From NCBI GenBank assembly GCA_001464475.1, contig LNDX01000006.1, positions 117,792 to 181,791 of the forward strand: a stretch of DNA of 64,000 nucleotides. Direction: 5' to 3'. The position numbers and the translations under genes were made by a program. The stretch is from Flavobacteriaceae bacterium Ga0077528 (GTDB lineage: Bacteria > Bacteroidota > Bacteroidia > Flavobacteriales > Flavobacteriaceae). Shown piece after piece: positions 41,097-54,102 of the stretch. How positions within the stretch are numbered: the stretch's first letter is position 1; each line of letters opens with the position of its first letter. The notes below the pieces were generated by a model that had not been told where the DNA came from, did not search any database, and saw only the letters and a list, made by a program, of their open reading frames with translations.

Positions 41097-42140
41097 ATGA
41101 ATTGGAGTGCCAAAATTATAAGCCATAACGGCGAAAAACGAATTGCTGTTTATTTTGAAAAGAATAAAGATCTAATAGAACGAATAAAAAAACTTGAAGG
41201 TTCGCGCTGGAGTCAAAGTTTGAAGGTTTGGCATTTGCCAGATACTGAAAAATATAGAAATCAATTTCAAATTATATTTCCTGAAACTAAACTTATTAAT
41301 GAAGAAGGAATTGAAGCAATTACTAAGTTTACGCTTTGGTTACGCTCCAAACGTTACAGCGAAAAAACTATAATAACCTATTGTGACGGATTGAAATCCT
41401 TTTTAGTTTTCTACAATAAAAAACCTATACAATCTATTACAAATGAAGATGTTATAATTTTTAATAATGAATATATAATTAAAAATAAATTATCAGAATC
41501 ATATCAAAATCAAATTGTAAATGCAATAAAGTTATATTTCAAAATAATTAGAGATACCAAAATTGATATTGAAAAAATACATCGACCAAAAAGGGCTAAA
41601 ACTTTACCAAATGTTTTGAGTAAAGAAGAAGTAAAAGCCATTCTTGAAGCGCCAACCAATCTAAAACACAAGATGATGTTGAGTTTAATTTATAGCTGTG
41701 GTTTGCGCAGCGGAGAATTATTGGCACTTGAACCTAAACATATTGACTCAAAACGAAACATTGTTTTACTTAAAAATTCAAAAGGAAAAAAAGATCGAAT
41801 CGCACCATTAAGTCCAAAAATATTAGAATTATTGAGGTCCTACTATCTTATGTACAAACCTGTTAAATATTTATTTGAAGGAAATATTGTTGGTGAACCC
41901 TATTCAGAAAAAAGTTTACAACAAGTAATGAAACAATCAATTCAAAAAGCAAATATTTTTAAGCCAGTTACATTACATTGGCTTCGTCATAGTTTTGCTA
42001 CTCATTTATTAGAAAGCGGAACCGATTTAAGATATATTCAAGAATTGCTTGGTCATAGCAGTAGTAAAACAACTGAAATTTACACACATGTAAGTACCAA
42101 AAATATTCAGCAAATCCGAAGTCCGTTTGATGATTTATAA
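41097..42140 (+). CDS. Tyrosine recombinase, candidate integron-type integrase of Xer/IntI lineage
   Basis: 347 aa with all catalytic residues: Arg in CGLRSGE (about 203), Lys in KGKKDR, His-x-x-Arg in HWLRHSFATHLL (about 296), His in LGHSSSKTT and Tyr in EIYTHV (about 329). The end, IRSPFDDL, resembles the VRSPLDAL end of IntI1. The extra segment of about 20 residues that marks IntI before the HxxR box is absent. Residues 1-60 (RWSQSLKVWHLPD) form an added N-terminal domain before the SAM-like domain. It lies immediately upstream of, and is co-oriented with, the cassette array, as in the inverted integron of Treponema denticola. An ordinary XerC/D-like element integrase is the alternative. 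Confidence 0.85.
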   Translation: MNWSAKIISHNGEKRIAVYFEKNKDLIERIKKLEGSRWSQSLKVWHLPDTEKYRNQFQIIFPETKLINEEGIEAITKFTLWLRSKRYSEKTIITYCDGLKSFLVFYNKKPIQSITNEDVIIFNNEYIIKNKLSESYQNQIVNAIKLYFKIIRDTKIDIEKIHRPKRAKTLPNVLSKEEVKAILEAPTNLKHKMMLSLIYSCGLRSGELLALEPKHIDSKRNIVLLKNSKGKKDRIAPLSPKILELLRSYYLMYKPVKYLFEGNIVGEPYSEKSLQQVMKQSIQKANIFKPVTLHWLRHSFATHLLESGTDLRYIQELLGHSSSKTTEIYTHVSTKNIQQIRSPFDDL

Positions 42141-42159
42141 TTTATATTTTATACATTTG
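42126..42159 (+). promoter_or_regulatory. Candidate cassette promoter (Pc): TTTG-N22-TACATTTG
   Basis: A -33 TTTG (42126-42129, inside the last integrase codons) and a -7 TACATTTG (42152-42159) point into the cassettes. The spacing of 22 nt is at the long end of the accepted range. Confidence 0.55.
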
Positions 42160-42168
42160 ACATAAATA

Positions 42169-42247
42169 CGCTATTTAGTAGCGCTAATCATACCCAATTT
42201 GGGTGTATTACCGCTATAACATAGCGACTATATACAAGTTATGCTCT
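42169..42247 (+). other. Candidate attI recombination site
   Basis: Contains hairpins CGCTA-TTTAG-TAGCG (42169-42183), ACCCAATTTGGGT (42192-42204) and CGCTAT-AAC-ATAGCG (42212-42226), then the core GTTATGCTCT at 42238-42247. The core is the exact reverse complement of the end of cassette 1 (42825-42834), marking the junction. Confidence 0.65.
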
Positions 42248-42260
42248 ATCATAGAAAAAT

Positions 42261-42833
42261 ATGAATAAAATCAACATTCTGCTAGTTGACATCTATATTT
42301 CTGAATCCAAAACATCAGAGGCAATTTCAGATGAGGAAAATTCTAAAATTCTTAATTTTAGAAATGAGTTTACACATTTTATAAAATTAGAAGAAAATAG
42401 TAATGTAAAAAAACTTATTGATGAAGCTGAAATTATTCCTGATTATGTCCTTGAATCTTTTTTAATCAATAAGTTTATTGAGTTTAAATCATCAAACATT
42501 CTTTGTGTCGGTCTATACTCGAAAGAGGGTTTGAAAATTATTAAAAACTCCCTAAATTCTCTAGGTTTAACAGTAAATAAAATTTGGTATGTTAAACAAA
42601 AAGATCCAGACACTTACAAAATTCAATTTTGTCAAAACCCACCTAATGCTAGCTTTGAAAAGTATCTCGAAGAAATTGAAGAGAGATGGGAAAAATCATA
42701 TCGTGAGAGAAAAGACTTCATTAACTTTTTAAAAACAGAATTTTTAGATTTAGAATGGAGAGTTATTGAAGTAGATTATATAAAACCAATAACTAAGGAA
42801 TATATCATGAACAAAATAAATGACAGAGCATAA
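42261..42833 (+). CDS. Cassette 1: hypothetical cytoplasmic protein, 190 aa
   Basis: No signal peptide or membrane helix. The start MNKINILLVDIYISES and the region SSNILCVGLYSKEGLKIIKNSLNSLGL suggest an alternating alpha/beta fold, followed by a helical C-terminal half rich in Glu and Lys. I do not recognise the family. The stop codon TAA (42831-42833) is part of the left core TAAC of the following attC-like site, so the gene fills its cassette from end to end. It is the first cassette after the candidate promoter and so the one expected to be expressed best. Confidence 0.65.
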   Translation: MNKINILLVDIYISESKTSEAISDEENSKILNFRNEFTHFIKLEENSNVKKLIDEAEIIPDYVLESFLINKFIEFKSSNILCVGLYSKEGLKIIKNSLNSLGLTVNKIWYVKQKDPDTYKIQFCQNPPNASFEKYLEEIEERWEKSYRERKDFINFLKTEFLDLEWRVIEVDYIKPITKEYIMNKINDRA

Positions 42834-42987
42834 CCGCAGTTTGCACCAATTGCTGGGCTTGCGCTTGCTATTTTGTTCTTCGTGGAAAATAATCTGGTGA
42901 CTTCTACTCTATCTTTCTAAGAAATTTTGTAGGTTTGTTTTGGTCAGTGATTGCAGCAGCAACTGGTGCAAGCTGCATACGTTAGCA
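42828..42987 (+). repeat. attC-like site 1
   Basis: Left core GCATAAC (42828-42834), right core GTTAGCA (42981-42987). GCAGTTTGCACCAATTGCTG on the left pairs with CAGCAACTGGTGCAAGCTGC on the right with few mismatches. The middle holds CTATCTTTCTAAG, shared with sites 5 and 9 and in part with site 6. Confidence 0.8.
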
Positions 42988-43017
42988 AGCATTATAAATC
43001 CACGTAAACTAAAAAAA

Positions 43018-43581
43018 ATGAAATTCTGGTTTGGTTTAATATTATCGTTATTTGGTGGCTTACTAGGAATAGGTCTTTTTCGTGAATGGATAAGATTAAA
43101 AACTATTTTAGATGATTCAAACCTTGATATTATTTCTTTAATAATTCTTGTAATAGGATTATTGCTTTCTGCCTTTGACCATTTTGAACAGTCACAAGAT
43201 TTAAAGAAATTAGAGAATGAGCAAAAAGGCAGAGTACTTGAACCAAATCAAAAGGAAAATCTAATATTAGCTTTAAAAAAAGCTTCAAAGACAAAGGTTG
43301 TTTTAATGAGTATTCAAGGAGACCGAGAATCTTTTAGATTTGCTAATGCTATCAAGGATTTACTTGTTGAATCAAATTGGGAAGTTGATGGAGTTTGGGA
43401 GGAAATAATAATTGGAGGTATTGGACCAGGATTAGTAGTTCGAGAAAAATCTTCAGATGCAAACTCAATTGGAAAGATTGTTAATGAAGCTTTAAATAAA
43501 AATAATATAAATGCAAAAGTTGTTGTAAAATCAGATCTTAAACCAGATTTAATTCAAATCATTGTTGGTTCGCGACCTTAA
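43018..43581 (+). CDS. Cassette 2: membrane-anchored hypothetical protein, 187 aa
   Basis: The ATG at 43018 is chosen because an upstream in-frame start (42940) lies inside the attC-like site. Two hydrophobic segments (about residues 1-20 and 38-57) are followed by a soluble domain of about 120 residues with KTKVVLMSIQGDRESFRFA, a Gly-rich GGIGPGLVV stretch and a C-terminal LIQIIVGSRP. The architecture suggests two helices holding a cytoplasmic domain. Family not recognised. Confidence 0.65.
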   Translation: MKFWFGLILSLFGGLLGIGLFREWIRLKTILDDSNLDIISLIILVIGLLLSAFDHFEQSQDLKKLENEQKGRVLEPNQKENLILALKKASKTKVVLMSIQGDRESFRFANAIKDLLVESNWEVDGVWEEIIIGGIGPGLVVREKSSDANSIGKIVNEALNKNNINAKVVVKSDLKPDLIQIIVGSRP

Positions 43582-43623
43582 TTTCAGCCAATGTTAGTAG
43601 TCATATTTAAATGAAATAACGCA

Positions 43624-43756
43624 TGCTAACATTGGTTTTCATCAATGGCGAGGCTTGCGCTCATCAGGAAAGTACGCTGATGCAATAAAATTTTGGTTAT
43701 ATTTGTGTGGTCAGTGCTGAAAGTCGCCACTGAATGAAAGCCAAGGGACGTTGGCG
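43624..43756 (+). repeat. attC-like site 2
   Basis: Left core TGCTAAC (43624-43630), right core GTTGGCG (43750-43756). TTTTCATCAATGGCGA pairs with TCGCCACTGAATGAAAG. The left core is the reverse complement of the start of cassette 2 (GTTAGCA at 42981). A further perfect repeat CCAATGTTAG (43588-43597)/CTAACATTGG (43626-43635) overlaps it. Confidence 0.8.
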
Positions 43757-43765
43757 GTAATACTC

Positions 43766-44308
43766 CTAAACCTGAGTAGTTATCACATCAATATTTAAAT
43801 CCAATTTTTGATAATCTTTGTCATTAGTGACAACTTTATACTTATTTAAAATTGCTAATTGAGCGTAATAAGCGTCATTAAAATCAACAATTTTAAAATT
43901 TTTCAATATAGCACTTTTATCAATTGCATTAAAATTATCTCCAACAATTACTAAATTTGGTAGTTTAAAAATTTTATTAATTGATATTGTAATAGTTTCA
44001 ACAGAATTCTCATATTCTTTTATTCCCACAAAGTCTCTTTTAAAATCTTTATCGACAAATTTATTATTTGTTATCCATTGATTATAATCTCTACGAAGTA
44101 AAACATTTGCAAACTCAGAAACAACCATTGAAGTAATATAAATTGGTGAGTCTCTAGTTATTAATTTTTCAAGCAATCTAGCATATTGAGATTGGTCGTT
44201 TGCTTGAAATCCAGCAACTGTCCCATATAATAAAAGCCAAATATTTGTATCAAAAAAGAATTGGTCAGTATAACCAACTTCGAAGTCTTTTAATTTAATC
44301 GTTGCCAT
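43766..44308 (-). CDS. Cassette 3: PIN-domain protein (putative RNase)
   Basis: 180 aa from the ATG at 44308; the frame extends further upstream but only inside the STAS-like gene. DQFFFDTNIWLLLYG gives the first PIN Asp, EFANVLLRR the Glu, and FNDAYYAQLAILNKYKVVTNDKDY the C-terminal Asp residues. PIN proteins are Mg2+-dependent RNases, often toxins. It overlaps the upstream STAS-like gene by 14 nt, so it should be translated with it. It is the last gene of a three-gene minus-strand operon inside one cassette. No classical small antitoxin is present; the two upstream genes may play that role. Confidence 0.78.
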   Translation of the reverse strand: MATIKLKDFEVGYTDQFFFDTNIWLLLYGTVAGFQANDQSQYARLLEKLITRDSPIYITSMVVSEFANVLLRRDYNQWITNNKFVDKDFKRDFVGIKEYENSVETITISINKIFKLPNLVIVGDNFNAIDKSAILKNFKIVDFNDAYYAQLAILNKYKVVTNDKDYQKLDLNIDVITTQV

Positions 44309-44648
44309 ACAAAGCATCATTAGAATTTTTCTCAAAAGATTCTTTATCCGCAAAATATTCTTTTGCTCTTTGAATAACGTCTCTAAAAAGTATTCTGTCA
44401 TCCATTTCTACATTCTCTAGTTTTAAATATTCATTTAAAAACTCTCCTGTATATTCTTTTTTACTATATAAACTTCCAATTGCAGCATTAAGAAAGGCTG
44501 TAATCATAATCGTAATACCAGCAAAATCTAATTCAACTTTTTCTTTTCGCTGTAAACAAGAATCAACTATCTCAAAAATTTTCATTCCATTTTCAGTGGA
44601 AACCGCTAATTCTGAATTAATTACATCTTTTATTACTATGTGTTTCAT
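44295..44648 (-). CDS. Cassette 3: STAS-like DUF4325 protein
   Basis: 117 aa from the ATG at 44648; an earlier in-frame ATG (44705) would overlap the upstream gene. The pattern KVELDFAGITIMITAFLNAAIGSLY is the core of the STAS-like DUF4325 domain, related to anti-sigma antagonists such as SpoIIAA. It lies between a GHKL ATPase and a PIN protein. By analogy with SpoIIAB/SpoIIAA pairs, the ATPase may bind or phosphorylate it; this is an inference. Confidence 0.75.
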   Translation of the reverse strand: MKHIVIKDVINSELAVSTENGMKIFEIVDSCLQRKEKVELDFAGITIMITAFLNAAIGSLYSKKEYTGEFLNEYLKLENVEMDDRILFRDVIQRAKEYFADKESFEKNSNDALYGND

Positions 44649-44679
44649 TGTTTTTATTTCTTTATGCAAATGTACGTTA

Positions 44680-45561
44680 TTAAAAAATATTATCAAAATC
44701 TTCAACCTCTTGAATTAGCACATAATGATTGGAATCATTTAGATTAAATTTAATATTTACAATTGTTCCTTCAAATATAGAATTTAATTTAGCTTTTACA
44801 ACATTTCCATTCTTAAATTCATAAAAACCATCAGATGAAATAATTTGTATTTTTCCACGATTTAATTTAATGAATTCAAAAATAACAGATAATCCCAAAC
44901 CTCCAGAAGTTACACCTGTTTTGGTTGTATTACCTTTAATCATAGCCCATTCAATAGCATCAGCTCCTCCAATTTCTTTATTCAAATAGTCAGAAACATT
45001 CTGCTTTATATTAACACCTTTATCAACTATTGTGAAATGCAATGGTTTATCAACTTTTCTTGGGAAAAATTGACCGCAAGTATGTATATAATCACACTTT
45101 CCGTGTGTTCTAGCATTTTCGTATATCTCAAAAATATTTCTTGTAATCTCTTTCCCCAATTTTTTACTATGAGATGGAAATTGTGGTTTACTTAATAATT
45201 CATTTTGAATATAATTATAAAAACCACTATCATCATTTGGAGTAAACTTCATATAAGTTAATGAAGTATCATAATTATCATCTATTCTTTCAAAACCGAA
45301 AGGAACTAGAAAAGCATTTTTTCTTAGAATAGTTTCTATTGCAGTATTTATATTTTTTAAACTAATTTTATTATTTTTTGATTCTAAAATTTCAAAAATC
45401 GTGCCAATTAAAGCACATAAATTAGCTTCTAAAAAAGTTACTTTCTCGAAATCAAAAGTAATTTCAGAATTGTTTACATTTTGATGTTTATTAATCCAAG
45501 TTATAATAAAATCATATCCTTCAAACTCACTTTTAATATCATTGGGAATGGTTATTATCAT
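44680..45561 (-). CDS. Cassette 3: STAS-GHKL ATPase (anti-sigma/histidine-kinase-like)
   Basis: 293 aa. Residues about 1-100 look STAS-like (ITFDFEKVTFLEANLCALIGTIFE). Residues about 130-280 form a GHKL ATPase with the N box EIYENARTHG, G1 VDKGVNI and G2 SGGLGLSVIFEFI. There is no His-containing dimerisation domain, so it is not an ordinary sensor kinase; SpoIIAB/RsbW-type kinases are the closest model. It is the first gene of the minus-strand operon in cassette 3, 31 nt before the STAS-like gene. Confidence 0.8.
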   Translation of the reverse strand: MIITIPNDIKSEFEGYDFIITWINKHQNVNNSEITFDFEKVTFLEANLCALIGTIFEILESKNNKISLKNINTAIETILRKNAFLVPFGFERIDDNYDTSLTYMKFTPNDDSGFYNYIQNELLSKPQFPSHSKKLGKEITRNIFEIYENARTHGKCDYIHTCGQFFPRKVDKPLHFTIVDKGVNIKQNVSDYLNKEIGGADAIEWAMIKGNTTKTGVTSGGLGLSVIFEFIKLNRGKIQIISSDGFYEFKNGNVVKAKLNSIFEGTIVNIKFNLNDSNHYVLIQEVEDFDNIF

Positions 45562-45632
45562 ATTGTGGAAACTTAATTAATATTTTTGCTAAAATATGAA
45601 ATAAAATCAACAAAAGTAAATAAAAGTACTAC

Positions 45633-45767
45633 CGCCAACAGCGGTTTCACGAAATTGCGGGGTTTGGGATTTATCAGAATTGGTAATTTTTGAAACTAAA
45701 TTTTGTCTATATTTGTAATCAAAAGTGTTGAAAATCCGCAACTTCGTGAAGCGGCGCCACGTTGTAA
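45633..45767 (+). repeat. attC-like site 3
   Basis: Left core CGCCAAC (45633-45639), right core GTTGTAA (45761-45767). GCGGTTTCACGAAATTGCGG pairs with CCGCAACTTCGTGAAGCGGC, one of the cleanest stems of the set. The left end TACCGCCAAC matches the start of cassette 3 (GTTGGCGGTA at 43750) over 10 nt. Confidence 0.85.
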
Positions 45768-45775
45768 GTAATTTT

Positions 45776-46444
45776 ATGGAAATGCTAAAAAAAATATTTG
45801 GAATTAAAACAGAAAAGCCGAGTTTGGTAATTGAACCTAATGGTATTAACACGATTGGCGGAAAAGGAAATAAGGAAATAGAAATACCTTATTTTGAGTA
45901 TAGTCCTGTGGTTTATCTTGGTTGTATCTCAAAAGATGAAAAAGAATTAAAACTTTTAGATTTTGACTTACATATAGTTTGTCCAATATTTATAGATTTA
46001 TCTGAACCAATCTTTTTTGATTATTCAGATTATAAAAAACCAATTATTATAACCGAGAATGTTGAAACTAATTTTTATCAATATTTTGAAGATATACCAA
46101 ATACTTCAATTATAGAATATAAAGAAATTAATTTCAGTTTTAATTATGCAAAGACAGTTAAAACAAAAATAGGTATACATAATATTGAACATGTTCCAGG
46201 TGAAATAGGACAATTTATAAACCCGAATTGGATACAAGAAGAGCAATGGCCGAATTGTCCAAAGAATGGAAAAAAAATGAAGTTTTTATTTCAATTAACC
46301 TATGTTGAAGAAAGTATTGTTTTAAAAGGTCAAGACGTATTGGAAAAAGAATCTATAGAACCATACTTAAATTTTGGAGGAGATTTTTATGTTTTTTATG
46401 AACCCGAATCAAAAACAATTGCATATCTAATTCAGTATGAATAA
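45776..46444 (+). CDS. Cassette 4: hypothetical protein with weak DUF1963-like end
   Basis: 222 aa from the ATG at 45776, just after the right core of site 3; another ATG at 45782 is possible. No signal peptide. The C-terminal part has PNWIQEEQWPNCPKNGKKMKFLFQLT and later FGGDFYVFYEPESKTIAYLIQYE. That order of P-W-Q, E-P-C, M-x-F-L-x-Q and Y-V-F resembles DUF1963/YwqG proteins, but it is weak. Function unknown. Confidence 0.65.
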   Translation: MEMLKKIFGIKTEKPSLVIEPNGINTIGGKGNKEIEIPYFEYSPVVYLGCISKDEKELKLLDFDLHIVCPIFIDLSEPIFFDYSDYKKPIIITENVETNFYQYFEDIPNTSIIEYKEINFSFNYAKTVKTKIGIHNIEHVPGEIGQFINPNWIQEEQWPNCPKNGKKMKFLFQLTYVEESIVLKGQDVLEKESIEPYLNFGGDFYVFYEPESKTIAYLIQYE

Positions 46445-46451
46445 AAACTAC

Positions 46452-46583
46452 TTACAACAGGCGTTTGGCAAGATTGCGAATTTTGTAGTAAATTCACATT
46501 TATTTCTCGCAAGAAATTTTATCTTTGATAGAAAATAATCGGTTCCGAAGTTCGCAAACTCGCCAAGCGCCGGAACGTTAACA
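46452..46583 (+). repeat. attC-like site 4
   Basis: Left core TTACAAC (46452-46458), right core GTTAACA (46577-46583). GGCGTTTGGCAAGATTGCGAA pairs with its right-hand counterpart (TTCGCAAACTCGCCAAGCGCC, minus one base). The left end matches the cassette 4 start GTTGTAAGTA over 10 nt. The middle (GATAGAAAATAATCGGTTCC) is shared with site 7. Confidence 0.85.
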
Positions 46584-46612
46584 GTAAGCTTTAAAAAAAA
46601 CCAGCGGAAATT

Positions 46613-47008
46613 ATGAAGACTTATTTAAATACACTTTTTATTTTTTTTCTTATATCTATCCCAAACATAGCGAAATCTCAGAATTTAGAAAATTTTGAGG
46701 AATATATTGTTAACGAATGGTCTCTAGAATATTATGAAACTGGTGGAGCAAAATTTCCACCAAAATCTGGGCATGAAAATGATAAAATGATTTTTACCAA
46801 AGAGCATAAATCAGAATCAATAAACAACGGTGTTTCTCAAGTTGGAACATGGGAATTTGATAAAGAAAATGGAATTTTATTAGTTGTTGAAGAAAAAAAT
46901 GAATTCAAAATGAAATTTAAAGTCATTTCCTGTACAGAAACTAATTGTGTTTTGGAATTAAAAAATTTACAAGGTCAGAAAATACGAGCTTTTTTAGTTG
47001 CAAATTAA
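46613..47008 (+). CDS. Cassette 5: small secreted lipocalin-like protein
   Basis: 131 aa with a signal peptide (LFIFFLISIPNIAKS). The rest has short beta strands: EWSLEYYETGG, DKMIFTKEHKSE, VGTWEFDKENGILLVVEE and CVLELKNLQG. The pattern G-T-W-x-F-D and the length fit lipocalin-like proteins common in flavobacteria. Ligand unknown. A similar protein is in cassette 7. Confidence 0.65.
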   Translation: MKTYLNTLFIFFLISIPNIAKSQNLENFEEYIVNEWSLEYYETGGAKFPPKSGHENDKMIFTKEHKSESINNGVSQVGTWEFDKENGILLVVEEKNEFKMKFKVISCTETNCVLELKNLQGQKIRAFLVAN

Positions 47009-47019
47009 TAAAAGTCTAC

Positions 47020-47180
47020 TGTTAACAACGATTTTGCGCTATTGCTGGACTTGAGCTTGCTATTTAGTCTTCGTGGAAAATAATCTGGTGGCTACAATTC
47101 TATCTTTCTAAGAAAAGTCGTAGTTTTGTTTTGGTCAGTGCTTGCAGCATCAACAGACGGCAAGCATGGGAACGTTGGGC
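47020..47180 (+). repeat. attC-like site 5
   Basis: Left core TGTTAAC (47020-47026), right core GTTGGGC (47174-47180). Its stems are more degenerate than in site 3. The left end TACTGTTAAC matches the cassette 5 start GTTAACAGTA over 10 nt. The middle matches site 1 closely (TCGTGGAAAATAATCTGGTG). Confidence 0.8.
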
Positions 47181-47293
47181 GATATTTTATGAAAAAAATG
47201 TGCATAATAGAAGTTCTGGAAATTATTTTTATATTCAATTCCAACCTTTAGCAAATAAAATACATCTTAATTTTATAAACCTAAATCAACATT

Positions 47294-48004
47294 ATGAAAA
47301 ATCTAATCTATTTTGTTATCGCAATCTTAACTGTAAAATCTCATTCTCAAAACAAAAACTTCATAGATCAACCTTACGTTGAAACAACATCAAAAGCTGA
47401 CACTCTTATAATTCCTGATAGAATTTATTTAAACATTGTAATTTCCGAAAAAGATACAAGGGGAAAAATATCTCTAGAAGAATTGGAAACTAAAATGATA
47501 AACAAATTAAATTCTATTGGAATTGATCTAAAAAAACAATTATCACTATCAGATTTATCAAGTAACTTCAAAAAATATTTTCTTAAACAGCAAGAAGTAC
47601 AAAAAGCTAAACTTTTTAATTTATTAGTTTTTGATGCAAAAACTGCAGGTTTAGTAATTCAAAAACTCGAAGAAGAAAATATATCAAACATATATTTAGA
47701 AAAAACTGAATATTCAAAAATTGAACAATTAAAACTTGAACTCAAAAGTTTAGCTGTCAAAAAAGCAATTAAAAATGCTGAATATTTAGTCAAACCTTTT
47801 AATCTAAAAGTTGGTGAAGCAATGTTTATTTCTGACATTGATGTAAACATTACAAACCTTAACTATGGTAGGAATTCTGCAATTCAAATTCGAGGAATTG
47901 CGAGTCTTAGGGAATATGGTTCTGAAGCCGAAAACAAAGAAATTGAATTTGAAAAAATAAAAGTAAGTGCGGAAGTAGGTGTTAAATTTAAACTTGAAAA
48001 GTAA
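47294..48004 (+). CDS. Cassette 6: secreted SIMPL-domain (DUF541) protein
   Basis: 236 aa with a signal peptide (LIYFVIAILTVKSHS). The layout of PDRIYLNIVISEKDT, a central LEEENISNIYLEKTEYS and the helix LKSLAVKKAIKNAEYLVKPFNLKVGEAMFISD is the SIMPL/DUF541 domain. The family assembles into periplasmic rings, but its role is unknown. The ATG at 47294 lies 120 nt from the cassette start, leaving room for an own promoter. Confidence 0.75.
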   Translation: MKNLIYFVIAILTVKSHSQNKNFIDQPYVETTSKADTLIIPDRIYLNIVISEKDTRGKISLEELETKMINKLNSIGIDLKKQLSLSDLSSNFKKYFLKQQEVQKAKLFNLLVFDAKTAGLVIQKLEEENISNIYLEKTEYSKIEQLKLELKSLAVKKAIKNAEYLVKPFNLKVGEAMFISDIDVNITNLNYGRNSAIQIRGIASLREYGSEAENKEIEFEKIKVSAEVGVKFKLEK

Positions 48005-48010
48005 TACATC

Positions 48011-48181
48011 GTACAACCGCCGTTTGAATCAATTTCTGGGCTTGCGCTTGTGTTTCCGTCTTAGTGGTAAATACTCAGATGTTTTCAATTCTATCTTTCA
48101 AATTAATTTTGTAGATTTGTTTTGGTGAGTGCTGGCAGCAGCAACTGAATACAAGCGGTCGAACATTGTGAAAAATTCCCA
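48011..48181 (+). repeat. attC-like site 6 (degenerate right core)
   Basis: Left core GTACAAC (48011-48017); the right core reads ATTGTGA (48175-48181), so the expected G of GTT has become A. Arms CGTTTGAATCAATTTCTG and its partner near 48138-48165 still pair. The middle resembles sites 1 and 5. Confidence 0.65.
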
Positions 48182-48229
48182 AAACACTTGTAGAATTCAA
48201 GACATTAATTTAAAACTTAACTCTATCAT

Positions 48230-48288
48230 ATGAAATCGCCATTAACATCAAGTTTGCGCTAACAAACACTAATGATTAAAAAGGCGAT
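48230..48288 (+). repeat. Dispersed approx. 65-bp hairpin repeat, copy B (inside cassette 7)
   Basis: Matches 33465-33530 at about 85 percent, including the paired ends ATCGCC and GGCGAT. It lies upstream of the cassette 7 gene just as copy A lies upstream of the OmpP1-like gene. Confidence 0.65.
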
Positions 48289-48324
48289 ACCATACGTTAC
48301 CTCTAAAAAATAAAATTTAAACAT

Positions 48325-48753
48325 ATGAAACCAATATTTACGATTCTATTTCTGATTTCCAGTTTGACATTATTTTCACAAACTGAGAATGTAGTTGGAA
48401 ATTACAAACTTATCCTTGAAACTAAAGACAATAGCTCATTTGAATATGAATTGACTTTAAGCCAGGACGGAACATTTTCCTTTCATTATTATTCGAATAT
48501 CAAACAAGGAATTCCACCCGAAGTAAATAAATATGGAAAAGGAAATTGGACTATAAAAAATAATGTGATTACATTCTTCTCTGATAAGCAAAAAGATTTT
48601 GATGAAAAATACACTTTGGATTTTACAAATACCAAAGCAAGATTTGTTACAAAATCTCCTCGTGATAAAAGTGAAGAAATAATAAAAACTCAACTTAAGT
48701 TCCTAGAGTCAGAAATTTTCTGGATGAGAAGAATTGATATAGATAAAATATAA
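48325..48753 (+). CDS. Cassette 7: small secreted lipocalin-like protein
   Basis: 142 aa with a signal peptide (ILFLISSLTLFSQ). After it, VVGNYKLILETKDNSSFEYELTLSQDGTFSFHYY and GKGNWTIKNNVITFFSD give the strand pattern of small lipocalin-like or META-like proteins. A charged C-terminal helix follows. Similar in plan to the cassette 5 protein but not closely related in sequence. Function unknown. Confidence 0.65.
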   Translation: MKPIFTILFLISSLTLFSQTENVVGNYKLILETKDNSSFEYELTLSQDGTFSFHYYSNIKQGIPPEVNKYGKGNWTIKNNVITFFSDKQKDFDEKYTLDFTNTKARFVTKSPRDKSEEIIKTQLKFLESEIFWMRRIDIDKI

Positions 48754-48761
48754 AACTAAAT

Positions 48762-48899
48762 ATTGTAAGCGTTCCTCGCAATTGCAAATTTTGTGGTAAG
48801 TTCACAACCACGTTTCGTAAGAATTTTTATCTTTAACAGAAAATAATCGGTTCCGAAGTTTGCAACTTATGCAAACAGGAACGTTGGGTGTCATTTGGC
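48762..48899 (+). repeat. attC-like site 7 (eroded left core)
   Basis: Right core GTTGGGT (48893-48899). The left side reads TTGTAAGCGTTCC instead of an AAC core. The internal part is close to site 4 (AATAATCGGTTCCGAAGTT), and CGCAATTGCAAATTTTG pairs with the right half. Confidence 0.65.
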
Positions 48900-48935
48900 G
48901 AAACAAAAAAAGAACAAAACATAAAATAAAAAAAT

Positions 48936-49382
48936 ATGGGAACTTGGGGAATAACCGCATTTGAAGATGATACAGCAATGGAATTTTACGATGAATTTTG
49001 TGAATCTGAACAATCAATAAATGATTTGGAAGATTGTTTAGACATTGTAATCTCACAAAATTATAATATGGACGATTTGCTTATGGAAGGATTCATTGAA
49101 CCAATTAACGCATTGGTTTGTGCTGAAATTATTGCAACTGCAAATGGAAAACCATGTGAAAAACTTCCAGATGATGAATATCATGATGAAATGGAAGTTC
49201 AAATGATTGATTTTGAAAAACTAAATCAGAATTTAACATCTGAAATAAAGCAAAAAGCAAAAGAAACTATAAACAAAATTAAAACAGACAACCAAATGCA
49301 TCTAAATGTTTTGTGGTTGGAATCTGAATCATTTGAAGAATGGAAAGAATATTTAGAAAATTTAATTGAAAGAGTAGAATAA
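48936..49382 (+). CDS. Cassette 8: DUF4259 protein
   Basis: 148 aa, acidic, no signal peptide. MGTWGITAFEDDTAMEFYDEF is the diagnostic DUF4259 N-terminus (M-G-x-W-G, then ED/ND and A-x-D-W/F). The rest is helical, with LVCAEIIATANGKP in the middle and a W-x-E-S-E end. DUF4259 proteins are often found in mobile or accessory DNA; function unknown. Confidence 0.8.
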   Translation: MGTWGITAFEDDTAMEFYDEFCESEQSINDLEDCLDIVISQNYNMDDLLMEGFIEPINALVCAEIIATANGKPCEKLPDDEYHDEMEVQMIDFEKLNQNLTSEIKQKAKETINKIKTDNQMHLNVLWLESESFEEWKEYLENLIERVE

Positions 49383-49396
49383 ATAAAAAAACGAAC

Positions 49397-49443
49397 GCCC
49401 AACAGCCGTTTCCGTTGGCAGAAATTTTACACAACTGTTATAT
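49397..49443 (+). repeat. attC-like site 8, truncated
   Basis: Left core GCCCAAC (49397-49403) followed by AGCCGTTTCCG as in the other sites, but the segment ends after 47 bp at CTGTTATATG, where the next start codon (49442) begins. The right two thirds of a normal site are missing. Confidence 0.5.
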
Positions 49444-50074
49444 GAAAAAAATATTTTATGTATTGTTATTCGTTTCATCTTTGAGCATAAAAGCTCAAGA
49501 ATATGAATTTGACACTATGACAATTTATTCTACAAAATTGGGTTTGAATCAAAATTCGGTTTCAAACTATTTCAGTTCAAAAAATAAAACCTATTCTTTT
49601 AAAATTTTTAGTTATGACGGTATTTTACAAGGTAGGCTATATGACTTCAAAAGATGTAAAGTACATTATTATAACGTTGAAGAAGTTATATCAAATAATG
49701 ATACAATCACAAAATTTACTTATAAGGAGACTTCTTATCTAAAAACTGGTCAGGAATTTTACACAAGTTACGTTTATGATTTTGAAACTACTGAAGAAAA
49801 TGATGATTATAAACAAGTCAAATTAAACGTTTTTAAAAACTCCAAAAGAAAAAAACCCGTTATTCATTTTGATTTAAAATTAAAGAAAATTGATGTCAAT
49901 TTGTTTCAAGCATTTAGAGTAAGTTGTATTCACCGTTTCGAATTTGTACCACAATTTGATATTAATGGTAACTATATTGTTGAAAGTGCAAAAGGAGTCA
50001 CGCATGAAGGTCAAATAATTGAACATCGTTTACTGGAATATAACAAAATAAACTTAATACTCAAAGCAGATTAA
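49442..50074 (+). CDS. Cassette 9: secreted hypothetical protein, 210 aa
   Basis: A signal peptide MKKIFYVLLFVSSLSIKA supports the ATG at 49442 over the frame start at 49415. The mature part is rich in Tyr, Phe and Lys and looks like beta strands (YSFKIFSYDGILQGRLYDF, FYTSYVYDFETTE). I do not recognise the family. Because the preceding attC-like site is truncated, this gene may be locked to cassette 8. Confidence 0.65.
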   Translation: MKKIFYVLLFVSSLSIKAQEYEFDTMTIYSTKLGLNQNSVSNYFSSKNKTYSFKIFSYDGILQGRLYDFKRCKVHYYNVEEVISNNDTITKFTYKETSYLKTGQEFYTSYVYDFETTEENDDYKQVKLNVFKNSKRKKPVIHFDLKLKKIDVNLFQAFRVSCIHRFEFVPQFDINGNYIVESAKGVTHEGQIIEHRLLEYNKINLILKAD

Positions 50075-50081
50075 AAACTTC

Positions 50082-50237
50082 TACTAACCCAAGTTTTAAA
50101 TTAGGCTTAATCTTGTTATTTTGTTTTTTTGTAAAAAACAATCTGGTGGCTACGACTTTATATTTCTAAGAAAATCCTTAGTTTTGTTTTGATTAGTGCG
50201 TGTATCAGTAACAGATGCAAGTGTCCGAACGTTACCA
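50082..50237 (+). repeat. attC-like site 9
   Basis: Left core TACTAAC (50082-50088), right core GTTACCA (50231-50237). The middle shares CAATCTGGTGGCTAC and TTTCTAAGAAA with sites 1 and 5. Its stems are weak. Confidence 0.7.
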
Positions 50238-50251
50238 GTAAAACTTAAAAA

Positions 50252-50767
50252 ATGCGTAAAACGACAACCACAGTTTTGACAATCATAATACTTTGGATAA
50301 GTATTTTAACATCAATTGTAAGAAATCCGCAATTTGGCGTTCAATTCATATTTGGATGTATTAGCTTAATAAGTGCTTCAACAACTTTGCTTCTGAGAAG
50401 AAAAGATTTAAGTCTCGGAATTTTAACTTTTGCATTATTTCTATCTACTTTTAATGTAATTATATTTAATGAATCATTAAGCCTAAAATTTGGTTTTATT
50501 AGTTTGATACCTTTTTTGTTATTACTTATATTAATTTTTTCAAACTTTGGCGAATTAATTGATTTGAGAGAAAAATGGTTTGGAGTTGAAACTGTTGAAA
50601 TTGAAAAATCACAACTTAATAAAATAGCTTTCTACAAACGTGAATTTCAAAATTTATCTTCCGAAGAATTATTAAGAAGAGAAAATGAAGATAGAATTAC
50701 TGAAGAAGCAAGAATTGCTATCAAACAACTTTTGAGTGAAAGAGATAATACAATGTATATAAGTTAA
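50252..50767 (+). CDS. Cassette 10: small membrane protein, 171 aa
   Basis: About four hydrophobic segments in residues 5-110 (VLTIIILWISILTSIV, FIFGCISLISASTTLLL, LGILTFALFLSTFNVIIF, FISLIPFLLLLILIF), then a charged cytoplasmic tail of about 60 residues with EELLRRENEDRITEEARIA. Not recognised. It starts 15 nt after the right core of site 9. The cassette ends at TGGTAAC (50774-50780), the reverse complement of its start. Confidence 0.65.
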   Translation: MRKTTTTVLTIIILWISILTSIVRNPQFGVQFIFGCISLISASTTLLLRRKDLSLGILTFALFLSTFNVIIFNESLSLKFGFISLIPFLLLLILIFSNFGELIDLREKWFGVETVEIEKSQLNKIAFYKREFQNLSSEELLRRENEDRITEEARIAIKQLLSERDNTMYIS

Positions 50768-50780
50768 GTACTACTGGTAA

Positions 50781-51055
50781 CATTTATTTACCACATTTGA
50801 TTACTATGATATTTCTAAAATAAGATTCATATTTTCTATTGTTTTTGGTAATATTTCAATATCTTTTATTCATTTAAAACAATAGATTTATTTAAACATT
50901 AATTAGCTCAATTTGTTTTAATCAATTTTAATTTTAGACCATGATTCTTATCTAAATAATAAAATTAAACATTCAATTTCTTGAGAGTTTTTTTACATTT
51001 GACCAATTACTAGTTGAAATAAGTTGTTTTAAATTATTAAATATAGAATTGCGAA
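50781..51055. other. Intergenic region after the array
   Basis: AT-rich, with no gene that I can support. The array ends at 50780 without the palindromic half that a complete final site would have. Confidence 0.5.
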
Positions 51056-51790: not shown

Positions 51791-52819
51791 TCAAAAATAC
51801 TTCTTTCTCAACCAAAAAGCCACATTAACCAAAATAATCAATGCCGGAACTTCAACTAAAGGTCCAATAACGCCAGCAAATGCTTGTCCGCTATTGATTC
51901 CGAAAACGCCTATGGAAACGGCTATCGCTAACTCAAAATTATTTCCTGAAGCGGTGAACGATAATGCAACAGCATCACGATAATTGGCTCCAATTTTCTT
52001 GGAAACAAAAAACATCAAGAAAAACATAATAGCAAAGAAAATCACTAGTGGAATGGCAATTCGAACAACATCCATAGGTAAATCGACAATCATTTCGCCT
52101 TTCAAACTGAACATTAACACAATCGTAAAAAGAAGCGCTATCAAGGTAATTGGCGAAACAAACGGTATAAATTTCTGATTGAAGAATTTATCTCCTAAAT
52201 ATTTTTTAATCGCAAATCGACTAATCACTGCTAATGCAAATGGAATTCCTAGATAAATTCCAACGGTTTTGGCAATTTCTGAAATAGTAATATCGAGTTC
52301 CAAACCTTTGATTCCGAATAATGGCAACATCACTGCCAAATAAAAATAGGCATACAAACTGAAGAAAAACACTTGTAGCAAACTGTTAATTCCGATTAAT
52401 CCTGCTGTTAGTTCGCGGTTGCCTTCGGCTAGTTCGTTCCAAACGATTACCATTGCAATGCACGGAGCAATTCCAATGATGATTAATCCTGTCATGTATT
52501 CTGGATAGTCTTTTAGGAAAAAAGTAGCTAATAAGAACATCAAAAAAGGACCAACAATCCAGGTTATGAAAAACGAAGCTGTGAGTAATTTGGGTTGTTC
52601 AAACATTTTAGGAACTTGCGAAAAATCGATTTTTGTTAATGGCGGATACATCATTAAAATTAGTCCAATTGCCAAAGGAATATTTGTAGTTCCAGATGAA
52701 AACGAGTTAATAAAATCGGCTGAATTCGGAATAAAATAACCAATGCCAACTCCAATTAGCATAGCTAGAAATATCCAAAGTGTTAAGTATCGATCTAAAA
52801 AATTAAGTCTTTTTTTCAT
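51791..52819 (-). CDS. acr3: Arsenite efflux permease ACR3
   Basis: 342 aa with about ten membrane helices. LDRYLTLWIFLAMLIGVGIGYFIP and GIAPCIAMVIVWNELAEGN, with the essential cysteine in helix 4, are ACR3 hallmarks. Exports As(III). Last gene of a minus-strand ars cluster with arsR, a DUF6428 protein and an arsenate-reductase-like phosphatase; a dispersed repeat separates it from the phosphatase gene. Confidence 0.93.
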   Translation of the reverse strand: MKKRLNFLDRYLTLWIFLAMLIGVGIGYFIPNSADFINSFSSGTTNIPLAIGLILMMYPPLTKIDFSQVPKMFEQPKLLTASFFITWIVGPFLMFLLATFFLKDYPEYMTGLIIIGIAPCIAMVIVWNELAEGNRELTAGLIGINSLLQVFFFSLYAYFYLAVMLPLFGIKGLELDITISEIAKTVGIYLGIPFALAVISRFAIKKYLGDKFFNQKFIPFVSPITLIALLFTIVLMFSLKGEMIVDLPMDVVRIAIPLVIFFAIMFFLMFFVSKKIGANYRDAVALSFTASGNNFELAIAVSIGVFGINSGQAFAGVIGPLVEVPALIILVNVAFWLRKKYF

Positions 52820-52867
52820 GTTAAACCATTAAGGTATTAAGATTCATTAAGATTTATTATATTCACA

Positions 52868-52890
52868 GTTGTCATTCCGTAGGAATCTCA
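52868..52890 (-). repeat. Dispersed 23-bp repeat, copy 2
   Basis: Exact reverse complement of 3778-3800, located in the 68-bp gap between acr3 and the phosphatase gene. Confidence 0.75.
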
Positions 52891-53496
52891 TTTAATCTGA
52901 CTAAACACATAATGCATTTCACTTGCTATTTGTAAACTTCTTTCTGCGTATTTTTCGTTCATTAAATCGGTTCCGTCAAAAGCTTTTGGATCGTCGTATT
53001 TTATTGGAAATCTGGCTTCTGCACCAAAAACCATTGGACAACCTTCATCTGCATTATTACAAGTCATTATGGCTCCAAACTTACTTTTCGGATTAAAATC
53101 ATCGAAATACGCTTTTGAAAAACAAATAATGGGATGTTGATTTTCATCAAACTTAACCGCATAAACCGGATTTTGCTCTTCACTCAACTTCTGAATTTCA
53201 AAACCTTGATTGGTCAACGTTTCACTAACTTTTGGAAACATGGCTGTAGCTTCCGTTCCGCCAGAATAGCAAAAAACCTTTTGAATTCCGAAATGAAACG
53301 CCATAGTTTGTGCCCAAATTTGAGACAAATGACTTCTTCTAGAATTGTGCGTGCAAATGAAGTTTAGACGAATTTCTTCGTTGGAGTTTACTTTATTTTG
53401 AATATAATCAATCAAAGGTTTCAAAACTTCCTTTCGTTCGTTAGGAACAGAAATTTCAGTAATTGTTTGTATTGTATTTGATAAATTTTCAAGCAT
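52888..53496 (-). CDS. Arsenate reductase of the low-molecular-weight phosphatase type
   Basis: 202 aa. FICTHNSRRSHLSQIWAQT carries the C-x5-R P-loop of the low-molecular-weight protein-tyrosine-phosphatase fold, as used by ArsC enzymes that reduce As(V). TCNNADEGCPMVFGAEARFPIKYDDP contains later cysteines suited to disulfide cycling. An N-terminal extension of about 40 residues precedes the P-loop. Position between acr3 and arsR supports arsenate reduction; a plain phosphatase is the alternative. Confidence 0.83.
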   Translation of the reverse strand: MLENLSNTIQTITEISVPNERKEVLKPLIDYIQNKVNSNEEIRLNFICTHNSRRSHLSQIWAQTMAFHFGIQKVFCYSGGTEATAMFPKVSETLTNQGFEIQKLSEEQNPVYAVKFDENQHPIICFSKAYFDDFNPKSKFGAIMTCNNADEGCPMVFGAEARFPIKYDDPKAFDGTDLMNEKYAERSLQIASEMHYVFSQIK

Positions 53497-53625
53497 AGAT
53501 TATTTTTTTTACCGCAAAGAGCGCAATGATTTACACTATGTTCGCAAAGGATTTTACTTTTTCGCCACAGATTTCTTTTTACAATAAACTCTGTGCAAAA
53601 CTCTAAGAACTCTGTGCTACTTTTT

Positions 53626-54102
53626 CTAACAACAACCAGAATCTGGTGTACAACAAGAAGTTACTTTTGGTTTCCACTCTCCTATTTTTACTTTCAATTT
53701 TTCTGGAGGAATTCCGCAATTGTCTTTTGCCAAACAATCGGTTAGTTTTGATTTTAATTGGAAATTAGTTCCGTCAAAATCTAAACCGAATTTCCCAATG
53801 GTTTCTTTCATTTGGTATTCAACTTCAATTTCTAAATCTGGAATTTGCAATTTAGCTTCCGATAATTCAATGATGTGAACCAATTTTTCAGGATGCAATC
53901 GGTGATCATAATCGTTGGCTTCCCAAAGTTGAAAATTCACAACTTCTTCAGTGCGAACTACGCCACCACAATCGATGAAATGTTTAGTAATTTTACCAAC
54001 TTCAGTCACATGAAAATGACTTGGAACCAATTCGCCATTAGGCAATTGAAAAGCAATTTGTGAAAGATTTTTTAACTGATTTTTTATTTCTGATAGTTTC
54101 AT
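53626..54102 (-). CDS. DUF6428 protein of the arsenic cluster
   Basis: 158 aa, no signal peptide. The start MKLSEIKNQLKNLSQIAFQLPNGELVPSHFHVTEVG and the central NFQLWEANDYDHRLHPEKL are typical of DUF6428, which recurs beside arsR. The last ten residues, SCCTPDSGCC, hold four cysteines and look like a metal- or arsenite-binding tail. Function is inferred from context. Confidence 0.75.
   Translation of the reverse strand: MKLSEIKNQLKNLSQIAFQLPNGELVPSHFHVTEVGKITKHFIDCGGVVRTEEVVNFQLWEANDYDHRLHPEKLVHIIELSEAKLQIPDLEIEVEYQMKETIGKFGLDFDGTNFQLKSKLTDCLAKDNCGIPPEKLKVKIGEWKPKVTSCCTPDSGCC

What the first reader, a model, noticed from the sequence alone, without database searches (positions are those of the whole stretch)
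41097..50780. Integron-like gene cassette array in a flavobacterial chromosome
Ten gene units follow a tyrosine recombinase and are separated by palindromic sites of about 130-170 bp with AAC (left) and GTT (right) cores. The left core of each site is the reverse complement of the start of the same cassette, not of the next one, which is how attC sites in an integrated array behave. Cargo is diverse, mostly unknown, and in one case multigene. Well-described integrons are mainly from Proteobacteria, Spirochaetes and a few other phyla; I do not know of an established flavobacterial one with this recombinase type.
Basis: partly seen in the sequence, partly recalled or inferred. Interest (0 to 1): 0.93.

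Follow-up and report, generated by a model that had tools for sequence, protein, structure and literature searches.

The report
Integron without an IntI integrase
This Flavobacterium-type chromosome carries a recombinase gene followed by ten gene cassettes, most with two ends that match each other as the ends of a once-closed circle would, and because the recombinase lacks a piece found in every known integron enzyme compared here, these bacteria likely capture and swap genes with a second, separate kind of integron.

Summary
Behind a tyrosine recombinase (41097-42140) lie ten cassettes ending in palindromic AAC...GTT sites (eight recognisable, two truncated). A cassette's start is the reverse complement of the left core at its own end (3 of 362,880 permutations as good). 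In 205 cassettes from 40 Flavobacterium loci this pairing covers 15 nt with a constant mismatch at position 11; pairing within one integrated site is near background. One 595-bp cassette-plus-site is identical in two species, similarity ending at G|TT on both sides. An attI-like sequence ends at the first cassette in 60 of 79 loci. Canonical IntI arrays pass the same test.

The recombinase is not an IntI: 42 of 42 sequences, window included, lack the insertion that 14 of 14 IntI have and 41 form their own clade. Sites carry conserved mismatches where canonical attC has extra bases. Relatives occur in 153 of 299 genus and 193 of 349 family genomes sampled. It works like an integron but fails the enzyme test: a new variant. 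Ten literature searches listed no description. Recombination itself is untested.

The parts
41097..42140 (+). Tyrosine recombinase, 347 aa: N-terminal domain (about 1-70), SAM-like domain (77-156), catalytic domain with R204 K229 H294 R297 H320 Y329; no IntI insertion
42152..42159 (+). TACATTTG, fits the flavobacterial -7 box TANNTTTG (consensus recalled); possible cassette promoter, untested
   Evidence: sequence; TANNTTTG lies between stop and attI in 30 of 60 loci
42160..42240 (+). attI-like site: palindromic boxes 42169-42183 and 42212-42226 flank TACCC...GGGTGTA (42191-42207); ATATACAA|GTT at 42230-42240
42239..42981 (+). Cassette 1 (ORF 42261-42833, no Pfam match at E <= 0.1) with its site
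42832..42983 (+). attC-like site S1
   Evidence: 39.6 bits
42982..43750 (+). Cassette 2 (ORF 43018-43581) with its site
43628..43752 (+). attC-like site S2
   Evidence: 63.8 bits
43751..45761 (+). Cassette 3: three genes on the minus strand (weakly GHKL-ATPase-like 44680-45561, STAS-like DUF4325 44295-44705, PIN 43766-44401) with its site
45637..45763 (+). attC-like site S3
   Evidence: 87.6 bits
45762..46577 (+). Cassette 4 (ORF 45776-46444, no Pfam match at E <= 0.1) with its site
46456..46579 (+). attC-like site S4
   Evidence: 114.4 bits
46578..47174 (+). Cassette 5 (ORF 46613-47008) with its site; a full-length 72.7% identical relative of the cassette lies in another species' array
47024..47176 (+). 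attC-like site S5
   Evidence: not reported by the model
47175..48165 (+). Cassette 6 (SIMPL/DUF541 ORF 47294-48004) with its site
48015..48167 (+). attC-like site S6, right core ATT instead of GTT
   Evidence: 21.1 bits
48166..48883 (+). Cassette 7 (ORF 48325-48753), degraded ends
48768..48885 (+). attC-like site S7
   Evidence: 54.2 bits
48884..49437 (+). Cassette 8 (DUF4259 ORF 48936-49382)
49401..49439 (+). Site S8, truncated (left and right cores only)
49438..50231 (+). Cassette 9 (ORF 49442-50074, no Pfam match at E <= 0.1)
50086..50233 (+). attC-like site S9
   Evidence: only its right end is reported by the model, E 1.6
50232..50781 (+). Cassette 10 (ORF 50252-50767) ending in a left core (50769-50781) without a hairpin: end of the array

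Best explanation
The locus is an integron-type cassette platform that is likely run by its own tyrosine recombinase, which has no IntI insertion. Inferred working: a cassette exists as a circle in which its start and end close into one complete palindromic site; the bottom strand of that site folds into a hairpin; the recombinase joins it, at G|TT, to the double-stranded attI just behind its own gene; excision is the reverse. Shown by sequence: cassette boundaries at G|TT, covariation of a cassette's own two ends, hairpin arms with compensatory changes, a conserved attI at the expected place, exact sharing of one cassette between two species, and the missing insertion. Inferred: that this recombinase does it, that it uses folded single strands, and that the bottom strand is the one used. 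Two arms can be read in each site, both G-Y-T-N7-A with the A in a conserved mismatch; these mismatches would take the place of the extra bases that set the strand in canonical attC.
For: Same-cassette pairing in the window and in 205 cassettes (0.79-0.86 at positions 4-9, 0.56 at 10, 0.03 at 11, 0.70-0.80 at 12-15, background after), with same-site pairing near background. A weaker form in 62 cassettes from 26 further loci, mostly of other genera. Canonical IntI arrays pass the same test. Mobility: 595 bases identical between G118 and G198, 33-40% identity just outside G|TT. attI in 60 of 79 loci against 3.2% of random windows, and A at position 11 of the first cassette in 60 of 60. Sites downstream of the recombinase in 33 of 40 Flavobacterium loci and 20 of 26 others. 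Bottom strand folds better in 175 of 196 circle-form sites. All six catalytic residues in 41 of 42 sequences, the window included.
Against: No reaction was observed. The IntI insertion, called essential for integron function (PMC8138268, passage; PMC2426708's reference list cites Messier and Roy 2001), is absent. The extra bases typical of attC are absent. Of 16 chosen genomes without a recombinase match 12 still hold sites (median 4; 17 of 17 with one, median 34). Eighteen site hits of this genome lie outside the array and only 6 of the 18 have a recognisable cassette start. 7 of 40 Flavobacterium loci showed no site and 19 of 79 no attI match. Outside the genus position 11 is complementary as often as in shuffles (0.18), so the mismatch is less strict there. 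Some sites lie upstream: 2 in the 40 loci, 3 in the 26, one in L025. Inner-arm complementarity is partly built in by the way sites were picked; the outer-arm test is not.
Confidence: 0.8

Rival explanations
1. The recombinase moves cassettes between double-stranded sites, as Xer/dif or Cre do: the right half of each site alone reads as two 11-bp inverted arms around an 8-bp spacer, and hairpins are incidental.
For: Right halves show T-N7-ARC, N8, GTT-N7-A (my reading). Nearest solved structures include XerA and XerH as well as IntI. No IntI insertion.
Against: It gives no reason why the left arms exist, pair over 18 positions with changes on both sides and covary with the cassette's own start over 15 nt. 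The conserved mismatches favour folding of one strand.
Confidence: 0.12
2. An ordinary IntI integron whose enzyme merely lost the insertion and is dying.
For: Some window sites are degraded (S8, c7); TIGR02249 scores 205 bits.
Against: The insertion is absent in 42 of 42 sequences while catalytic residues stay in 41 of 42; the clade is separate from the IntI clade; up to 21 scanner sites in 17 kb (L114) and an identical cassette in two species are not signs of decay.
Confidence: 0.04
3. Dispersed palindromic repeats (MITE- or REP-like) that happen to lie between genes, with no cassette movement.
For: Sites also occur singly elsewhere in the genome.
Against: The intervals between sites, genes included, carry the covarying ends; identity between species starts and stops at G|TT; the attI is conserved.
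Confidence: 0.02

Closest known systems
Sedentary chromosomal integrons with IntI integrase (control here: 20 loci of the same phylum)
   Same: attI next to the recombinase gene, cassettes with one site each, same-cassette complementarity beyond AAC/GTT, many sites of about 115-125 bp; sites more alike within an array (0.69) than between arrays (0.47) here, a hallmark named for canonical ones in PMC9668308 (passage)
   Different: No IntI insertion (28-29 against 70 residues), separate clade, outer arm of 15 nt with a constant mismatch instead of 11-12 nt without one, mismatches instead of extra bases on the R''-L'' arm, recombinase gene reading towards the cassettes (the usual opposite orientation of intI is recalled), often palindromic boxes in attI
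VchIntIA (PDB 2a3v)
   Same: Best Foldseek match of the predicted model, E 1.1e-16; core-binding and catalytic parts align
   Different: About 59 residues of the chain (between 183 and 243) face 17 here (between 252 and 270); extra N-terminal domain of about 70 residues
Xer-type recombinases (XerA 5hxy; Xer-like proteins of the same genome)
   Same: No IntI-length insertion (34 and 36 residues in two own Xer-like proteins); XerA ties with IntI as nearest solved structure (E 1.2e-16)
   Different: Here next to attI and cassette arrays; own Xer-like proteins fall outside the clade
'Integron-like' subgroup of tyrosine recombinases in PMC8138268 (passages read)
   Different: The passages I read link the insertion to integron function and describe no arrays for members without it

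Membership tests
Integron (IntI type) | Integrase with the IntI-specific additional domain around patch III | tested here: not met
   0 of 42 sequences (window included) against 14 of 14 IntI; TIGR02249 matches positions 3-176 and 238-315 only, below its cut-off
Integron (IntI type) | Tyrosine recombinase with complete catalytic residues | tested here: met
   R K H R H Y in 41 of 42 sequences, the window included; one reads S at R204
Integron (IntI type) | attI beside the integrase gene, first cassette joined at GTT | tested here: met
   60 of 79 loci, the window among them; 19 without a match, including L100, L101 and L114, which have arrays
Integron (IntI type) | attC: left core complementary to the start of the same cassette | tested here: met
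   canonical control
Integron (IntI type) | Core boxes RYYYAAC and GTTRRRY | tested here: inconclusive
   AAC/GTT were required by the scanner; the base after GTT is A or G in most starts, the next three do not follow RRY as a rule
Integron (IntI type) | Extrahelical bases on the R''-L'' arm | tested here: not met
   Extra base on that arm in 54 of 59 canonical sites against 51 of 234 here, mostly at the loop end (left positions 22-26); the two sets were picked at different thresholds
Integron (IntI type) | Bottom strand of attC used | tested here: inconclusive
   Only predicted folding energy: bottom better in 175 of 196; strand use itself not testable here
Integron (IntI type) | Cassettes exchanged between arrays | tested here: met
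   Sequence evidence: one exact case, further full-length matches
Integron (IntI type) | Site-specific recombination activity | not testable with these tools
   needs bench work
Complex tyrosine recombinases with arm-binding domain | N-terminal arm-binding fold | tested here: inconclusive
   N-domain modelled as beta-beta-alpha-beta-beta-alpha, mean pLDDT 72; no significant fold match, best E 0.2 to a SMARCAL1 HARP domain
Xer/dif or pdif modules | 28-bp dif-like site with 6-bp spacer | not tested
   no dif search was run

The most novel reading that the evidence does not exclude
Integrons exist in a second form: a Xer-like recombinase with a private N-terminal domain handles folded single-stranded cassette sites without the IntI insertion, choosing the strand by conserved mismatches in two like-built G-Y-T-N7-A arms instead of by extra bases. 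It is spread through Flavobacteriaceae and beyond, and has probably been missed because surveys start from IntI and from attC models of other groups.
Probability: 0.55. Interest if true: 0.92.

Novelty: new variant of a known kind. Interest (0 to 1): 0.86.

Why it matters
The IntI insertion is treated as the mark of integron integrases and as needed for their function (passages in PMC9668308, PMC8138268, PMC2426708). A platform with the same cassette logic and no insertion gives a natural comparison for how tyrosine recombinases come to use folded single strands, and whether that happened once or twice. It also points to a large unread pool of cassette genes: recombinase relatives in 153 of 299 genomes of the genus and 193 of 349 of the family, and 4 to 107 sites in 17 chosen genomes that have one (where scoring stops at 107 candidates).

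Tried and rejected
Rfam scan: no match. PADLOC scan of 10 cargo proteins: no match at E <= 0.1. A promoter in every site: TANNTTTG occurs in 45 of 245 sites on the top strand against 19.7 expected, 6 on the bottom; enriched but not general, so not claimed. N-terminal domain as arm-binding or HARP-like: no significant match by fold, PDB profile or Pfam; among weak Pfam matches DUF5710 appears in 5 of 17 members, best E 0.0044. A fixed chromosomal site: G140 has the flanking LysM gene (85%, response regulator beside it) with no site or recombinase in 18 kb, its integron being on another contig; G012, G023 and G032 likewise show none, but their LysM matches are only 48-50% and may not be the same gene; G013 (62%) has scanner hits about 3-3.5 kb away. 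My first reading, that the flanks had no match in other loci, was wrong: my own line limit had cut the printout; one search corrected it. A different array between the same flanks was not reached: the contig of L016 ends 255 bp after its recombinase.

Rows dropped before counts: cassette 7; 11 of 245 sites outside 112-134 bp and 9 of 205 cassettes; 13 of 58 candidate sites before the model alignment; L137 and L028 before the tree. The scanner makes false hits at its threshold of 15: in the window two at exactly 15 inside the array are not sites, so some of the 245 will be false.
Full report
What is there. The window holds a 347-aa tyrosine recombinase (41097-42140) followed by ten gene units. 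The host genus is inferred to be Flavobacterium: G140, 'same genus', has a contig of the same length and site spacing as the named Flavobacterium MAG contig L009. Units end in palindromic sites that start with AAC and end with GTT. Eight sites have recognisable arms (118-153 bp); S8 is truncated and the tenth keeps only its left core. Cassette 3 carries three genes on the opposite strand (weakly GHKL-like ATPase, STAS-like DUF4325, PIN). Over their Pfam cut-offs otherwise are only SIMPL (c6) and DUF4259 (c8).

The decisive test in the window. If a cassette travels as a circle cut at G|TT, its own start and the left core at its own end belong together. For nine cassettes (c7 left out, degraded) 7.4 of 10 bases after GTT match the same cassette's end, against 3.4 of 10 for other pairings; 3 of 362,880 permutations reach this; the own end is the best match for 7 of 9. 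A constant mismatch is visible at the eleventh base: A in 9 of 9 starts, facing a left core that reads G there, reverse-complemented, in 8 of 9.

The same test elsewhere. Stretches behind relatives of the recombinase were fetched from 40 Flavobacterium loci (species genomes without names) and scanned with a script that looks only at the inner arms between AAC and GTT. It found 245 downstream sites, 33 of 40 loci with at least one and 26 of 40 with three or more, and two hits upstream, where about 1.5 kb per locus was available. The 205 cassettes between neighbouring sites give the profile 0.86, 0.79, 0.80, 0.82, 0.83, 0.81, 0.56 at positions 4-10, 0.03 at 11, 0.80, 0.70, 0.73, 0.71 at 12-15, background from 16 on. 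Pairing the two outer sides of one integrated site gives background or little more. So the outer arm is a 15-nt unit that is complete only in the circle, and the crossover lies at or next to GTT. As the scanner did not look at the outer arms, this is independent of how sites were picked. In 26 further loci, mostly of other genera, 20 have a downstream site (92 in all, 3 upstream), and 62 cassettes show a weaker form: 0.50-0.76 at 4-10, 0.60-0.61 at 12-14, and at 11 an A in most starts but complementarity equal to shuffles, 0.18.

Control. Twenty loci with true IntI from the same phylum give 33 cassettes with canonical boxes: pairing runs to position 11 (0.70) and fades at 12 (0.39), with no mismatch at 11. 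The test thus recognises known integrons, and the sites here differ in a definite way.

Site anatomy. In 234 sites of 112-134 bp the inner arm pairs at 97-100% at most positions while its letters vary, except at left position 9 (30% complementary, mostly T opposite G) and position 18 (4%; A opposite C in 225 of 234), and 81-88% at 6 and 14-16. From G8 to A18 is eleven bases, as from the G of GTT to the mismatched A of the outer arm: both arms read G-Y-T-N7-A. On 45 sites 18 of 18 pairs have changes on both sides and 91.4% of cells pair, against 60.2% when shuffled; this is inflated because sites were chosen for pairing. In canonical sites an extra base on the R''-L'' arm occurs in 54 of 59; here in 51 of 234, mostly near the loop (the two sets were picked at different thresholds). 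PMC2727003 (passages read) says that such extrahelical bases direct strand choice. Here the mismatches are A.C on the top and T.G on the bottom strand at position 18, and mostly so at outer position 11, while position 9 goes the other way; the bottom strand of the circle-form site folds better in 175 of 196 cases, -29.0 against -25.3 kcal/mol on average.

attI. Behind the stop codon of the recombinase, 75-135 bp away, a sequence of the type ATATAMWA|GTT marks the start of the first cassette in 60 of 79 loci; random windows match in 3.2%; base 11 of the first cassette is A in 60 of 60. Palindromic boxes about 26 and 70 bp before the crossover are seen in many of the 45 loci printed, with different letters in different species; they were not counted. 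Copies of this attI lie at C5:142248, C42:5284 and C6:114692 of this genome with no recombinase beside them; the pattern gave 8 matches against 3 for the reversed control.

Mobility. The unit that starts at L098:3270 (G118) is identical to one in L089 (G198, oriented): 476 of 476 cassette bases and 119 of 119 of its site, and identity drops to 33-40% on both sides of G|TT. Other matches between loci: L087/L083 91.9% and L094/L095 90.5% over the full cassette, L095/L090 99.9% over the last 1431 of 1711 bases; window cassette 5 has a full-length 72.7% relative in L089 with both boundaries in register. For L087/L083 the sites behind the cassette are not alike (31%). A close relative of the window, L016, shares 7,119 bp of upstream flank at 93.1% and about the first 150 nt of the recombinase, then carries a different recombinase (50% identity) and downstream sequence. 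Its contig ends before an array.

The enzyme. NCBIfam places it near archaeal XerA (210 bits) and integron integrase TIGR02249 (205 bits), under both cut-offs; the latter match leaves out profile positions 177-237. Against 2a3v about 59 residues of the chain face 17. Where 14 of 14 IntI from Bacteroidota have 70 residues, 42 of 42 sequences, the window included, have 28 or 29, and the catalytic residues stand in 41 of 42. In the tree IntI forms one clade (98/97) and 41 of these sequences another (95/92); their order with Xer is not resolved, and long branches are flagged. The predicted model (pLDDT 83) matches 2a3v and XerA best and about equally. The N-terminal domain is modelled at moderate confidence and has no significant relative; the best, non-significant fold match is a SMARCAL1 HARP domain, E 0.2.

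Spread and scatter. Relatives at E <= 1e-60 occur in 153 of 299 genus genomes and 193 of 349 family genomes; arrays were examined only in the loci named above. With a model built without window sites, 17 chosen genomes with the recombinase have 4-107 sites (median 34) and 16 chosen ones without a match have 0-25 (median 4; 12 of 16 above zero) (scoring stops at 107). This genome has 23 hits at E <= 0.1, 5 in the array; of the 18 others, 5 have a cassette start matching at 10 or 11 of 11 informative bases and one at 9. The longest ORF of a cassette reads forward in 163 of 205, backward in 18, and 24 have none of 50 aa or more.

Literature. Ten searches of the held open library listed no integron of this kind in Flavobacteria; I saw the listings, not every paper. 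PMC8618304 (passages) names Bacteroidota among phyla with integrons. [quoted passage not shown] PMC9668308 and PMC2426708 (passages) stress or use the additional domain. PMC8138268 (passages) notes that the insertion is not fully conserved in its integron-like subgroup but essential for function. Subscription papers and preprints were not searchable, so prior description cannot be excluded.

Verdict. By anatomy it works like an integron; by the enzyme test it is not an IntI integron. I file it as a new variant of a known kind, with the recombination step inferred.

Noticed in passing
G000 C5:142248-146955, C42:4466-5302, C6:114692-115719 (loci L206, L208, L217): attI-like sequences followed by attC-like sites with no recombinase beside them: orphan platforms in the same genome.
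   Followed up: partly
L005 (G000 C29:27337) and L006 (G000 C9:60516): Tyrosine recombinases of about 410 aa, of another kind, lie within about 1-1.5 kb of attC-like sites (C29:28759, C29:29325, C9:61933); an element that targets such sites is conceivable.
   Followed up: no
window 43766-45561: Cassette 3: weakly GHKL-like ATPase, STAS-like DUF4325 and PIN protein, all opposite to the array's direction; no PADLOC match.
   Followed up: partly
L016:10001-10150 against window 41097-41246: The two recombinases are nearly identical over the first 50 residues and the upstream flank, then differ by half: a switch inside the recombinase gene at one chromosomal place.
   Followed up: partly
window 42169-42226 and attI-like sequences of many other loci (printout): Paired 15-17-bp palindromes in attI whose letters differ between species; could be recombinase arm sites or operators.
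   Followed up: partly
window 51791-54102: Permease of the arsenite type (name recalled, no family search run), phosphatase-like and small genes downstream of the array; a DNA relative of 51795-52819 occurs elsewhere in other genomes of the genus.
   Followed up: no
many contigs: Contigs often end shortly behind the recombinase, as repeats would cause; arrays are probably undercounted in draft genomes.
   Followed up: no
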